IMG/VR virus record: IMGVR_UViG_3300027782_000348
Span: 1 to 24,701 of that record
Reading direction: 5' to 3' (one strand)
Length of the DNA: 24,701 bases
From: a virus
Position 1 is the first letter of the stretch. Each line of letters starts with the position of its first letter. The position numbers and the translations under genes are program-made. Below are positions 7,016 through 22,089 of the stretch, piece by piece. The notes beneath the pieces were generated by a model. The model was not told the DNA's origin, made no database searches, and worked only from the letters and a program-made list of their open reading frames with translations.

Positions 7016-7045
7016 AGGAGGGGAGCGCATTCTTTTGCAACGCTC
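7016..7045 (+). promoter_or_regulatory. Distant Shine-Dalgarno plus hairpin before thyX
   Basis: AGGAGGGG (7016-7023) is a strong Shine-Dalgarno but lies 38 bases before the ATG at 7062. Between them GAGCG (7023-7027) and CGCTC (7041-7045) can pair, which would shorten the distance. Alternatively the site serves the in-frame TTG at 7035, 11 bases away, adding nine residues to ThyX. Confidence 0.4.
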
Positions 7046-7061
7046 AATAAATTTTGTATCT

Positions 7062-7703
7062 ATGAATGTAAAACTAGTGGCGATAACAAAGCCGATCGAT
7101 GATATGTCGGCATCCGACTTTATCTCATATTGCGCGCGTGTCAGCAATCCATCGAACCAGAACAACACCCTGACCAGTCCGAAGTTGTTGGCCTACTGTA
7201 TCAAGAACGGACACTGGAGTGTCTTTGAGCAGGCCAGTTTCACGGTCGAGATCGTGACAAGCAGAGCTATATCCGCCCAGATACTCAGGCACAGGAGCTT
7301 TTCGTTCCAAGAATTCTCCCAAAGATATGCGGTCGCAACAGAGTTCGAGCCTGTTGAGTTTAGAACGCAGGACTTGAAGAATCGACAGGGTAGCGGTGAT
7401 GTCATAAATGACTTGGGCATAAAATGCACATTTGATGATACTGTTCGCTTTTGCGAAACCACATATCTGAGGATGATTGGTGCAGGCGTATCCAAGGAAA
7501 CCGCCCGCATGATCCTTCCGCTCTGCACGCAGACGACCTTGTACATGACCGGCAATGTCCGTTCATGGATCCACTATCTGGAGCAGCGATGCGCGAAGGG
7601 CACGCAGAAGGAGCATCGATTGATCGCGGAAACTATCCGCGATGAAATCTTTGCGGTTCAATTTCCAGCAATCCATGAAGCATTGAATTATGAAAAGAAC
7701 TGA
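7062..7703 (+). CDS. thyX: Flavin-dependent thymidylate synthase ThyX
   Basis: The 213-aa product carries the ThyX signature exactly: RHR at 76-78, seven residues, then Ser86 (RHRSFSFQEFSQR). Other family segments are CARVSNPSNQ (24-33), KLLAYCIKNGHWSVFEQASF (41-60), and the C-terminal ARMILPL...LYMTGNVRSWIHYLEQRC. The enzyme makes dTMP from dUMP using FAD, NADPH and methylene-tetrahydrofolate, supplying thymidine for phage DNA synthesis. I start at ATG 7062, which matches the family N-terminus. A TTG at 7035 with a better-placed ribosome-binding site is the alternative. Confidence 0.95.
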   Translation: MNVKLVAITKPIDDMSASDFISYCARVSNPSNQNNTLTSPKLLAYCIKNGHWSVFEQASFTVEIVTSRAISAQILRHRSFSFQEFSQRYAVATEFEPVEFRTQDLKNRQGSGDVINDLGIKCTFDDTVRFCETTYLRMIGAGVSKETARMILPLCTQTTLYMTGNVRSWIHYLEQRCAKGTQKEHRLIAETIRDEIFAVQFPAIHEALNYEKN

Positions 7704-14579: not shown

Positions 14580-14846
14580 TTACCAGGCTTTGCAACTCCA
14601 GTGACGAGGAGTTGTTTTATCATTCGCAGTATCGCAGTTGTGTCTCGCTCGGAAATTCTTTCTACGACCGGGATTGTTCTTTTTGATGGTCATATCCGGG
14701 TCACCGAACCTTACCTTAACAACATTTCCATTGTCGTTCTTCACGTACACGGCGCTCTTCTTGCGCTCGCCAGGAGTGTAGAACGGTTTGTTGAGCGACA
14801 CCTTCTTTCCTTGATAGGTGTTACCTTTTTTTGAGAGAGAGGTCAT
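14580..14846 (-). CDS. Conserved small basic virion-region protein (88 aa)
   Basis: The product reads LSKKGNTYQGKKVSLNKPF, KKSAVYVKNDNGNVVKVRFG, then RRKNFRARHNCDTANDK and a C-terminal HWSCKAW. I recall this 'R-x-x-F-x-x-RHxCD...WSCKxW' arrangement from phage proteins in late regions (DUF6321-like), but cannot check it. The paired Cys/His could bind metal. The start ATG overlaps the previous gene's stop as ATGA, and the 3' neighbour begins four bases later, so it is firmly within the virion operon. Confidence 0.75.
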   Translation of the reverse strand: MTSLSKKGNTYQGKKVSLNKPFYTPGERKKSAVYVKNDNGNVVKVRFGDPDMTIKKNNPGRRKNFRARHNCDTANDKTTPRHWSCKAW

Positions 14847-19215: not shown

Positions 19216-20022
19216 TCAATAATTCCCATAACCAGAGGAACCAGACGGCTGACTGTATAGATTCTGAGATGGGCCGTTCATCATATTGTCAACATTCCCG
19301 TAGTTGTACGGAGCAGATTGTCTTCCTCCACCCAAAGACTGCTGCATCATCGCGCCACCATAAAAACCACCAGCACTTGAAATAGCACTTCCAAATGCAG
19401 ACATCGTTGGATCAGGCATCGCAGCTACCTGTGCAGCTTGCAAATCTCGACCATACTGAGCCTGTTGCTGTTGCTGCATCACACCGACGCGCTGTGCCGG
19501 CGTGATGAACATGCTGCTGGTCGAGAACGGCTGGACCATTCCATACGCACGCTGCTGCTGGATAAAGCTCTGGGCCTGCTGCAATCCTTGGTTCTGGATC
19601 TGCATGCCTGTCAATCCAAGGTCGCGAGCAGTCAACGATCGGCCCATCCCACTCGCACCACCAAAACCACCCGACAAAGCTCGCCCAGCGGTTGACCGTT
19701 GAACCTGTGAAGATATTTCCGGCGAGATTTCGCCTCGCAAAGACGCTCCTATGTTTGATCCTGCCTGTGCAATCAACTGGTCGTAACCAGGGATGGCCCG
19801 CCGAAGCTGTTCCTCAAGAACGCTCTGGTCAGCAGTCGTTGTCTTTCTTGCAAGTTCTGACGCAGAAGACAATGAGCCAAGGTTTTGCTTGATAGCATCT
19901 TTCTGCTCGGCGGCAAAATTGATTGGCTTAAATTCTGGAACATTTGGCTTGCTCCCTTTGCTCAAGAGTCCACCAATAAGGCTGGATCCACCAACGATTG
20001 CCGCTGCTCCTAGGAGTCCCAT
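19216..20022 (-). CDS. Gly/Gln-rich internal virion protein candidate (268 aa)
   Basis: The N-terminus is a Gly-rich hydrophobic segment (MGLLGAAAIVGGSSLIGGLL), as in small ejection proteins that insert in membranes. A helical region follows (LEEQLRRAIPGYDQLIAQAG), then a Gly-rich stretch (SGGFGGASGMGRS), a Gln-rich coiled region (QNQGLQQAQSFIQQQRAYG), and a Gly/Ser/Tyr/Asn-rich tail. This composition and the position upstream of two large helical proteins match the smallest member of podoviral ejection-protein trios. No sequence family is claimed. Confidence 0.6.
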   Translation of the reverse strand: MGLLGAAAIVGGSSLIGGLLSKGSKPNVPEFKPINFAAEQKDAIKQNLGSLSSASELARKTTTADQSVLEEQLRRAIPGYDQLIAQAGSNIGASLRGEISPEISSQVQRSTAGRALSGGFGGASGMGRSLTARDLGLTGMQIQNQGLQQAQSFIQQQRAYGMVQPFSTSSMFITPAQRVGVMQQQQQAQYGRDLQAAQVAAMPDPTMSAFGSAISSAGGFYGGAMMQQSLGGGRQSAPYNYGNVDNMMNGPSQNLYSQPSGSSGYGNY

Positions 20023-20025
20023 AAG

Positions 20026-20571
20026 TTAAAATACCTCCTTCACAAAACGATTGCCGTTCTCTACTGAGAACACTTTTTCAGGTTCGTGGCGCTGGATATT
20101 CATAGTTAACAATCGAGTTGCCTTTTCTTCTGGAAACGGTCGCTCGTCCTTGAAGCAATGAACCCATATCCGACGCAAAGTATCCAACTTAAAAAGTTCA
20201 CCCTCTTCAATCACCATGACATCATTGGAGCATGCCCACTGATCTGCATACTCCCTGATAGACTCAAATGACTGAAGATGAACCTCATAACCAAATCTTT
20301 CGCTGCATTCTTTGGATGAAGATTCGGCGTCTTTTTTTACATACACCTTGATTGAATCATTAACCACGGCTTTGGGCAGATATCCATAGGTAGAACAGTC
20401 GGCCACGTACTTGTGGATGAGCCGATAATCCTCGATTGACTGTTTCCAGTTAGGATCGGTAGCTCCCTGCTCATGGATTCCAAGACAATCGTTCTCCAAC
20501 GAGAAAAGGACCGACATGAATGCCGATCCAAACCTTGGAAGTCCGCAGATCTGGAAAAGTTTACCTTTCAT
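20026..20571 (-). CDS. Sulfotransferase-like P-loop protein (181 aa)
   Basis: I start at ATG 20571, overlapping the previous gene by 11 bases; an upstream in-frame start (20640) would overlap it much further. The N-terminus KLFQICGLPRFGSAFMSVLF (4-23) resembles the PAPS-binding loop of sulfotransferases (PRSGTTxL), here PRFGSAF. The nearby CLGIHE and YRLIHKYVADCS segments fit sulfotransferase-like phage proteins known to me. The usual loop Ser/Thr are partly changed, so activity is uncertain. It lies between the citrate-synthase-like gene and the ejection proteins. A role in modifying host surface or virion glycans is possible but unproven. Confidence 0.5.
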   Translation of the reverse strand: MKGKLFQICGLPRFGSAFMSVLFSLENDCLGIHEQGATDPNWKQSIEDYRLIHKYVADCSTYGYLPKAVVNDSIKVYVKKDAESSSKECSERFGYEVHLQSFESIREYADQWACSNDVMVIEEGELFKLDTLRRIWVHCFKDERPFPEEKATRLLTMNIQRHEPEKVFSVENGNRFVKEVF

Positions 20572-21127
20572 TTTTAACGCACAAAGATGTCCAAGCGGCA
20601 GTCCTTGCCAAGATGAAGATGGCCGACTCAGCGCCAACAATCACCCCAAGCTCGTTGCAAACAACGGCAGAATAGAGAGCAGCGTTTGGATGGACATCTT
20701 TTCCAACCTCTTTCATCCAACCATGAAGCTGGATAATCCTGTCATTTGCATGAGGAAAATCAGATTCGATAAGTCCAGACACATTGCTCCATGCGGGATC
20801 AATTTTGTCTTTGAAGAACGAGTTTCCAAACCCAGGGATCTTCATACCGGACTCGATGGCCGACTTCAACGCTCGCTCGTCGAATCGCTCGTAAACGAAT
20901 CGAGCAGGGCCGATTGGTCCATGTGCATCACCAAGAGTCAGGATTGCAGAAGCGATTCCGTTCGTCAGATTTCCGCTTCCAAAGAACGAGTTGACGGCGG
21001 CTCCAGAGCTTGAGTTCTGGTTGTTCCTTGCCGCCGTATCGTGTGCATCGAAGACAGCCTGAAGAAGCTCCAGTTTCTTTGGAGTGACTTCAGCAAGAGC
21101 GAAATCGATGTTCAGGTTCAGAACCAT
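20561..21127 (-). CDS. Citrate-synthase-like protein, catalytic residues altered
   Basis: The 188-aa product matches the C-terminal half of citrate synthase in order. Residues 38-68 align with the 'NAST...SGANPF...IAAGIASL' region, DAHGPIG (67-73) with GPAHGGA, IPGFGNSFFKDKIDP (97-111) with MGFGHRVYKNYDP, HPNAALYSAVV (146-156) with YPNVDFYSGII, and FILARTAAW (171-179) with FAMARTVGW. Of the E. coli-type triad, His264 is kept (His69), but His305 is Asn102 and Asp362 is Ala150. Arg314 of DPRA is also Ala112. The N-terminal half is missing. This is recognition by eye; the fold call is fairly firm, activity unlikely. It overlaps both neighbours. Confidence 0.75.
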   Translation of the reverse strand: MVLNLNIDFALAEVTPKKLELLQAVFDAHDTAARNNQNSSSGAAVNSFFGSGNLTNGIASAILTLGDAHGPIGPARFVYERFDERALKSAIESGMKIPGFGNSFFKDKIDPAWSNVSGLIESDFPHANDRIIQLHGWMKEVGKDVHPNAALYSAVVCNELGVIVGAESAIFILARTAAWTSLCVKNER

Positions 21128-22089
21128 TGGGAAAAACCTCCACCGTTCAAGCCGACCCCGACCATCCTGATGGTGTGTACTGCGTCGCCAAGATATTGCA
21201 TCGTCTGTTCCTGTACAGCCTGTACCGCTTTCGCTTCGTAGGCCACTGCTTCCTGTATCAAGTCGTTCTCCTCTTTTCGGATAGCCATCACCATCAACTT
21301 GATGGCGTCAGGAGAAGGAGGAATCAGATAGTCGTTCACTCCGGTAGCATTGACGTGACGCATCTTCGCCATGACCGTCACCGGCTTGCTGTCGTCGCTG
21401 CTGCACCGGTCCGCGAGATAGCTGCGACGATACTGAGGAAGCGTCTCATCGGGGTCGTACACAGCTACATCAAGCTCCAAAAGAGTTGTAGCATTGTACT
21501 CGTACAATCGGCTCGCCGTGTTGGTCGCCTCGCGGATGACCCCGGTAAGGCTGGTGAACTTCTTGGTAGATTGAACGTACGGAAGAGCCAAGGTCAGCTT
21601 TTCGCCATCAATCCAAACGCTTCCAGATAACGTCCTGATCCACTGACCATTCTGGTCCACCCCCTGAAGCGTGATTGTCTTTCCGACATCTGACGCATCG
21701 CCTGGATATACGCGAAGATAGCTGTTCAATCCACCGGACATGTCTCGGTAAGAAACAACCGTTCCTCGATCGACAAGCTGTTTGCCGGCGCACGCCGAGT
21801 TTTCTCCGAGCAATCCATATCCGCTCTCTTGGAACTCGAACCATTGGTTGCGAACAGTACCGACGCCGCAGCAATCTGCCACCGCTTCAATCGTCTCAAT
21901 CTGTCTAGGCCAAGTAATACACCCACCAACGGTGTTTATCGTGAACCGACCGTACGCTCCCGCCCAAAGACCCTTGTGCAGCAACCGGCGACACGCCTGA
22001 TTGATGTAGTCATAGACGCGCGGATCATCGACACACACGCCGACAACGCGGGCAATCGTAGATTGGATGTCCTGAACGATCAGTTTCAT
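21118..22089 (-). CDS. Podoviral neck/adaptor-like (tail tubular protein A-like) protein
   Basis: The 323-aa product begins with helices (VYDYINQACRRLLHKGLWAG) and then CITWPRQIETIEAVADC and RNQWFEFQESGYGL. A central beta-rich part follows (LRVYPGDASDVGKTITLQGV), and later YLADRCS and a C-terminal helix rich in Glu/Ala (AVAYEAKAVQAVQEQTMQYL). I associate 'YINQA...RLL..G.W.G', 'ITWPRxxxTI' and 'RNxWFEF' with podovirus-type neck or tail-tube proteins. Position between the fibre and ejection-protein genes agrees. The start ATG overlaps the collar-gene stop (TGA 22088-22086) in the -1 frame, which matters for that gene. Confidence 0.65.
   Translation of the reverse strand: MKLIVQDIQSTIARVVGVCVDDPRVYDYINQACRRLLHKGLWAGAYGRFTINTVGGCITWPRQIETIEAVADCCGVGTVRNQWFEFQESGYGLLGENSACAGKQLVDRGTVVSYRDMSGGLNSYLRVYPGDASDVGKTITLQGVDQNGQWIRTLSGSVWIDGEKLTLALPYVQSTKKFTSLTGVIREATNTASRLYEYNATTLLELDVAVYDPDETLPQYRRSYLADRCSSDDSKPVTVMAKMRHVNATGVNDYLIPPSPDAIKLMVMAIRKEENDLIQEAVAYEAKAVQAVQEQTMQYLGDAVHTIRMVGVGLNGGGFSQWF

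What the first reader, a model, noticed from the sequence alone, without database searches (positions are those of the whole stretch)
20561..21127. Citrate-synthase-fold pseudoenzyme inside a phage virion operon
Five consecutive blocks of the C-terminal half of citrate synthase align in order, including His69 (E. coli His264), but His305 is Asn102, Asp362 is Ala150 and Arg314 is Ala112. The N-terminal half is absent. The gene sits between neck/adaptor and ejection-protein genes and overlaps both neighbours, so it is unlikely to be a metabolic cargo gene in the usual sense. A citrate-synthase domain reused as a structural, CoA-binding or host-interacting protein would be new to me.
Basis: partly seen in the sequence, partly recalled or inferred. 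Interest (0 to 1): 0.85.

Follow-up and report, generated by a model that had tools for sequence, protein, structure and literature searches.

The report
Phage citrate-synthase-like protein in swappable cassette
Uncultivated tailed phages carry a shrunken relative of the metabolic enzyme citrate synthase that has lost most of its catalytic residues but is kept under strong selection, and it comes and goes between related phages together with a sulfotransferase-like partner gene, so it looks like an optional extra rather than a core part of the virus particle.

Summary
The 188-aa protein at 20561-21127 (minus strand) is a homologue of the C-terminal half of citrate synthase/citryl-CoA lyase. 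PF00285 matches the window copy at its cut-off and 31 of 31 close representatives. A profile of 8 diverse relatives hits 32 PDB sequences at E<=1e-3, all of this family, best 3.7e-13. Two key residues are kept (H69, R175); catalytic His and Asp became N102 and A150, an Arg became A112, and the N-terminal half is missing, so ordinary citrate synthesis is very unlikely.

The inference from position does not hold. Of 80 contigs with the upstream gene (best 80 of 426), 50 carry the protein, 28 lack it cleanly, 2 cannot be judged. It and the next gene are present or absent together: an accessory cassette with at least 7 gains or losses on the upstream-gene tree. One distant partner homologue passes Sulfotransfer_3.

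Distant copies (38-53% identical) keep the altered pocket (PGFGNSFF[KR]DxIDPxW, PNAA) and the partner; dN/dS is about 0.08. I favour a repurposed CoA-type ligand pocket acting with the partner late in infection. That function is inferred. Ten literature searches showed no such report.

The parts
20561..21127 (-).
   Evidence: PF00285 2.8e-6, 31 of 31 representatives, PDB profile 3.7e-13, residue counts over 68 distinct sequences
20026..20571 (-). 181-aa partner gene of the cassette, homologue of a sulfotransferase-family protein (window P-loop-like PRFGSAF; distant homologue PRSGTAF)
   Evidence: present in 47 of 47 CSL-bearing contigs of the set where the next gene can be read, in 0 of 30 without CSL; distant homologue L468 (41% identical) matches PF13469 at 2.8e-6, 28.2 bits, cut-off 27; the window copy itself has no sulfotransferase match
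21118..22089 (-). upstream flanking gene, 323 aa, called neck/adaptor by position only; its last codons CAATGGTTCTGA contain the CSL start codon
   Evidence: junction sequence; kept in cassette-less relatives; no supporting family match
19216..20022 (-). downstream flanking gene, 268 aa, called ejection-type by position only; a ribosome-binding-site-like AAGGAGG lies in the last codons of the partner gene
   Evidence: junction; starts 14-90 nt after the upstream gene, by extrapolated match position, in 28 of 28 cassette-less contigs; no supporting family match

Best explanation
SHOWN: the gene encodes a homologue of the C-terminal half of citrate synthase/citryl-CoA lyase. With the next gene it forms an optional two-gene cassette between two conserved genes of a probable late operon of uncultivated tailed phages; the cassette is gained or lost as a unit, is under purifying selection, and keeps one altered pocket signature down to 38% identity. 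INFERRED: it does not make citrate. The CoA-side loop of the old active site (PGFG, PN, His69, Arg175) is kept while most oxaloacetate/catalytic side chains are gone, so I propose a repurposed pocket that binds CoA, an acyl-CoA or a similar 3'-phosphoadenosine ligand, acting with the sulfotransferase-like partner, whose family's cofactor PAPS shares that nucleotide (established chemistry), on a host or particle component late in infection. Which molecule is bound, whether any chemistry is done, and whether the pair is packaged are unknown.
For: Homology; the 50 Foldseek rows shown (of 173) are all this family. Optional cassette: 50 of 80 with, 28 of 80 without, 2 not judgeable; neither gene found anywhere in 8 of 8 cassette-less records searched; 9 changes, at least 7 forced by starred branches, on the upstream-gene tree of 106 rows. 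Unit behaviour: partner in 47 of 47 readable CSL contigs and in 0 of 30 without CSL; 5 of 5 distant contigs carry both in the same order. Selection: median pairwise dN/dS 0.080 CSL, 0.100 partner, 0.062 upstream gene. Pocket: H69-P71, P98-F105, D107, I109-P111, W113, P147-A150 and R175 identical in all 8 rows of the diverse alignment. Partner: PF13469 over cut-off in L468, below it in L520 and L492.
Against: The N-terminal arginines that contact acetyl-CoA in the pig enzyme (R46, R164; PMC8455617) are missing, so CoA binding may be lost. The loop could be conserved for folding only. One close copy (L009) has Asp at position 150. The AlphaFold model is poor (pLDDT 56.7, pTM 0.56), no Foldseek match reaches E 0.001, and the best VIA-align Z of 8.2 is within what helical models without a clear match give. 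Only 1 of 21 partner copies scanned passes the sulfotransferase cut-off (15, 1 more, 3, 2); the partner model and partner profiles gave no PDB support. No ligand, expression or virion data exist.
Confidence: 0.45

Rival explanations
1. Non-essential virion protein: the citrate-synthase fold is reused as a minor structural, decoration or injected protein, made with the virion genes and packaged in some phages only.
For: 10- and 11-nt overlaps inside a probable late operon. A sister clade has a different gene of about 150 aa in the same slot in 78 of 80 contigs (1 lacks it, 1 contig ends); the copy scanned matches PHROGs labelled short tail fiber (6.8e-27).
Against: Absent with nothing of similar size in its place in 28 of 78 informative contigs, six of them 98-99% identical to the window in the upstream protein. 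The old active-site loops are among the most conserved parts, which a scaffold need not keep.
Confidence: 0.2
2. Modulator of the host enzyme: a truncated subunit-like protein that pairs with host citrate synthase or citryl-CoA lyase and inhibits or redirects it, as T4 Y06I (like YfiD, which copies the C-terminus of pyruvate formate-lyase) forms a complex with that host enzyme.
For: Homology to half of a central enzyme with key residues replaced; optional distribution; precedent of Y06I/YfiD (PMC8683613, passages).
Against: The missing N-terminal half holds part of the dimer contact (recalled, not tested); conservation centres on the pocket; the partner gene is not explained.
Confidence: 0.15
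3. New enzyme: Asn102, His69, Asn36/Asn38 and Arg175 form a new catalytic site that works on a CoA thioester or another ligand.
For: Asn102 is invariant in 68 of 68 close sequences and with its loop in 8 of 8 diverse rows; dN/dS 0.08.
Against: No acidic residue stands at the place of Asp362 except in L009; no substrate is known.
Confidence: 0.15
4. Chance ORF or decaying gene fragment.
For: Short and truncated compared with citrate synthase.
Against: 133 of 139 pattern-matched stretches encode a relative, and each of the 80 listed covers at least 187 of 188 residues; dN/dS 0.08; profile E 3.7e-13.
Confidence: 0.01

Closest known systems
Citrate synthase (PF00285; best PDB sequence match 2p2w, Thermotoga maritima)
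   Same: Homologous from the HxxN-type segment through the small domain to the late arginine; one catalytic His (H69) and the late Arg (R175) kept
   Different: N-terminal half not encoded; an active-site His is Asn35, the GFGH His is Asn102, the DPR Arg is Ala112, the PNVD Asp is Ala150; carried by phages as an optional cassette
Citryl-CoA lyase / ATP-citrate lyase C-terminal module (6hxp, 6hxo)
   Same: Shorter citrate-synthase-fold proteins; second-best sequence match (6hxp 1.2e-11) and best structural rows (Z 8.0-8.2)
   Different: 6hxp is 268 aa against 188; the GYGH His and the Asp of 6hxp aligned are replaced here
T4 Y06I / E. coli YfiD spare-part protein (PMC8683613, passages)
   Same: Phage-coded small protein related to the C-terminal part of a host central-metabolism enzyme
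   Different: Y06I carries the glycyl-radical element and restores the host enzyme; here catalytic residues are replaced and no host target is known
Phage auxiliary metabolic genes (as a class, recalled)
   Same: Optional enzyme homologue in a phage genome
   Different: Catalytic residues lost, so the usual enzymatic reading does not apply

Membership tests
Citrate synthase superfamily (homology) | PF00285 match over the curated cut-off | tested here: met
   27.1 bits against 27; five distant copies 29.7-39.6 bits
Citrate synthase superfamily (homology) | Citrate-synthase fold | tested here: inconclusive
   Low-confidence model; 50 Foldseek rows shown all this family, E 1.6e-3 to 1.9e-2; VIA Z up to 8.2, within background for helical models
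Active citrate synthase | His274, His320 and Asp375 (pig numbers), which take part in catalysis (PMC5518231, passages) | tested here: not met
   Only the His274 place is kept (H69); N102 and A150 stand at the others
Active citrate synthase | N-terminal half, with acetyl-CoA-contacting Arg46 and Arg164 (pig; PMC8455617, passages) | tested here: not met
   PF00285 positions before about 178 of 357 are unmatched and the DNA upstream is another gene
Active citrate synthase | Enzyme activity | not testable with these tools
   needs purified protein
Core virion gene of this phage group | Present in all members | tested here: not met
   absent in 28 of 78 informative contigs (80 examined, 50 with it, 2 cut short)
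Virion protein | Found in particles | not testable with these tools
   no proteomics available
Accessory phage gene | Patchy presence with the flanks kept | tested here: met
Sulfotransferase family (partner gene) | PF13469 match over cut-off | tested here: inconclusive
   L468 28.2 bits (cut-off 27), L520 24.2, L492 13.5; no match in L420, the L424 fragment, the window copy and 15 close copies

The most novel reading that the evidence does not exclude
A phage two-protein module in which a citrate-synthase pocket, stripped of its old chemistry, and a sulfotransferase-fold protein jointly bind or act on 3'-phosphoadenosine ligands (CoA, PAP, PAPS) to modify or sense something in the infected cell or particle.
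Probability: 0.25. Interest if true: 0.82.

Novelty: new variant of a known kind. Interest (0 to 1): 0.62.

Why it matters
Citrate synthase is the entry enzyme of the citric acid cycle. A conserved phage family that keeps its CoA-side loop but replaces most catalytic residues, is paired with a sulfotransferase-like protein in every examined contig where the next gene can be read, and is gained and lost as a unit would be a new use of this fold and a concrete handle on how uncultivated phages act on their hosts. It is also a warning: a domain search alone would label it a citrate synthase auxiliary metabolic gene.

Tried and rejected
Tried without result: relatives among 50,697 phage records (4 records, 22.9-26.8% identical, annotated gltA or prpC, named Acinetobacter phage MD-2021a); plasmids (2 weak hits); bacterial and archaeal genome contigs, by two back-translated patterns each (0 relatives of 68 pattern matches; for the upstream gene: 0 of 48). 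No host could be named. PHROGs gave only an unknown family at E 0.29. Two neighbours and the partner have no match in the phage records. The partner model (pLDDT 52.9) gave no meaningful fold match; the partner profile A5 found one PDB sequence, an oxidoreductase at E 0.023, and A7 none at E<=1.

Rejected: decaying fragment; core structural gene; a copy elsewhere in cassette-less genomes (0 of 8 records; some may be fragments).

Considered: the sister clade's slot gene looked cupin-like to me by eye, but PHROGs labels it short tail fiber; left open. Ten literature searches, seen as listings with starts of abstracts and only the first rows of longer lists, showed no paper on a citrate-synthase-like protein of tailed phages. 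PMC11256456 uses citrate synthase as a host marker gene (passages); the abstract of PMC9224243 and passages of PMC8851701 did not bear on it. The dimer-interface argument is recalled, not tested.

Bias and drops: the 106-row set includes many loci fetched by CSL or partner searches, so its 83:23 ratio is no frequency; identical rows were merged, 8 loci with under 700 bases downstream and those with under 320 residues or under 70% identity in the upstream gene were left out. The 80 loci are less biased but are the best 80 of 426. Script one search stopped with an error after its counts and two of three dN/dS results; one search replaces it for dN/dS.

Full report
What is there. The finding lies on the minus strand of a 24.7-kb virus record (G000). 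The ORF 20561-21127 codes 188 aa. It starts inside the last codons of the upstream gene (CAATGGTTCTGA, the ATG being its start; 10-nt overlap) and overlaps the next gene, 20026-20571, by 11 nt. A ribosome-binding-site-like AAGGAGG for the gene after that lies in the partner's last codons.

Homology. PF00285 matches the window copy at 2.8e-6, 27.1 bits against a cut-off of 27, and 31 of 31 representatives of the close family. NCBIfam gives 11 citrate-synthase, methylcitrate-synthase or citryl-CoA-lyase families at E<=0.01, all far below their own full-length cut-offs. phmmer with the single protein finds citrate synthase 2p2w at 1.4e-5. A profile of 8 diverse members finds 32 PDB sequences at E<=1e-3, all of this family (2p2w 3.7e-13; citryl-CoA lyase 6hxp 1.2e-11). 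The AlphaFold model is weak (mean pLDDT 56.7, pTM 0.56). Still, the 50 Foldseek rows shown, of 173 at E<=10, are all this family (E 1.6e-3 to 1.9e-2; none at 0.001 or below). VIA-align gives Z 8.2 to the citryl-CoA lyase module, which by the tool's own note is not decisive for helical models. Fold: likely, not proven. Homology: firm.

Active site. Passages name H274, H320 and D375 of the pig enzyme as taking part in catalysis (PMC5518231), His235 and His238 as further active-site histidines (PMC4524684), and R46, R164 and K366 as linked to acetyl-CoA (PMC8455617). By the printed alignments, the place of the first catalytic His is His69, of the second Asn102, and of the Asp Ala150. The histidine of the HxxN segment is Asn35, the arginine of DPR is Ala112, and the late arginine is Arg175. 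The missing half would hold R46 and R164. Over 68 distinct full-length close sequences, H69, N102, A112, N148 and R175 never vary, and A150 is A in 67 and D in 1, L009. So the replacements are fixed features, not window-specific errors.

Distant relatives. L520 and L468 are close to each other, so these are four lineages. All five pass PF00285 (29.7-39.6 bits). Because the searches used the loop itself, they could not find relatives that lack it; that limits what its conservation shows. In the 8-row alignment H69-P71, P98-F105, D107, I109-P111, W113, P147-A150 and R175 are invariant, whereas position 112 varies (A, S, C) and position 35 varies (N, T, D). The altered pocket is thus older than the close family.

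An optional two-gene cassette. I searched viral contigs with the upstream gene (426 relatives; best 80 kept). Of those 80, 50 carry the citrate-synthase-like gene directly after it and 30 do not (3 of the 50 are cut by the contig end). Two of the 30 have too little sequence (156 and 14 bases). In the other 28 the next operon gene begins 14-90 nt after the upstream gene, by extrapolated match positions. The partner is found in 47 of the 50 (the other 3 contigs end first) and in 0 of the 30. Six cassette-less contigs (L180-L185) are 98-99% identical to the window in the upstream protein. Eight cassette-less records of 12.6 to 61.9 kb hold neither gene anywhere, while four carrying records in the same searches do. 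In a larger, biased set of 106 distinct rows, 81 have both, 2 have the first with the second cut off, and 23 have neither. On a tree of the upstream gene this needs 9 changes, at least 7 by starred branches (shuffled labels about 21). L180-L185 keep a 29-codon ORF that starts like the citrate-synthase-like gene (MVLN) and ends like the partner gene (KEEF against KEVF): possibly a deletion scar. The five distant contigs carry both genes in the same order after the same upstream gene; four of them show the same downstream gene too, and L424 ends inside the partner.

Selection. Median pairwise dN/dS (pairs with dS 0.1-1.5, 76 rows) is 0.080 for the protein, 0.100 for the partner and 0.062 for the upstream gene. 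Pairwise DNA distances in a 38-row subset correlate (CSL with partner r 0.87, CSL with upstream gene 0.92, partner with upstream gene 0.83), so the pair is mostly inherited with its surroundings. There is also exchange: L008 is 82% identical to the window in the DNA of the upstream gene but 93-96% in the cassette and in the two genes further up.

Partner. The window's partner starts with a P-loop-like GLPRFGSAF. In L468 this reads VPRSGTAF, and that protein, 41% identical to the window's, matches Sulfotransfer_3 at 2.8e-6, over the cut-off. L520 scores 24.2 bits and L492 13.5, under the cut-off of 27. L420, a fragment of L424, the window copy and 15 close copies have no such match. So it is a homologue of a sulfotransferase-family protein whose P-loop-like motif is changed in the window's lineage; activity is unknown.

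Mechanism. Shown: homology, loss of catalytic side chains, conserved pocket, optional cassette, co-inheritance, selection. Inferred: it does not synthesise citrate; the CoA-side loop still binds a ligand; it works with the partner. CoA and PAPS share a 3'-phosphoadenosine part (established chemistry), which makes a common ligand attractive but is no evidence by itself. Rivals are a dispensable virion protein, a modulator of host citrate synthase (precedent: T4 Y06I, PMC8683613, passages), and a new enzyme. The pocket conservation speaks somewhat against the first two; nothing here separates ligand binding from catalysis.

Known or new. Searches of the phage, plasmid and genome-contig collections found no close relative (the last by two patterns only). 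Ten literature searches, named in Tried and rejected, listed no such phage protein in the open-access library held. The host is unknown. I rate it a new variant of a known kind: an enzyme fold carried and altered by phages.

Noticed in passing
L160 / record G010 (92,531 bases): Contig looks chimeric: a phage like the window's is interrupted by a second, distantly related phage with its own copy of the upstream gene at 42176-43261.
   Followed up: partly
L317-L396, slot after the upstream gene: The sister clade carries a different gene of about 150 aa in the same slot in 78 of 80 contigs; the copy scanned matches PHROGs labelled short tail fiber (6.8e-27). The slot may be a general insertion point.
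   Followed up: partly
L180-L185 just after the upstream gene: 29-codon ORF with a start like the citrate-synthase-like gene and an end like the partner gene, a possible deletion scar.
   Followed up: partly
window 7035-7703 (+): FAD-dependent thymidylate synthase ThyX (NCBIfam 4.9e-44).
   Followed up: no
window 14580-14846 (-): Small protein matching PHROGs family 7595 of unknown function (2.1e-13).
   Followed up: no
L009 3618-4181, residue 150: The one copy of 68 with Asp instead of Ala at the place of the catalytic aspartate.
   Followed up: no
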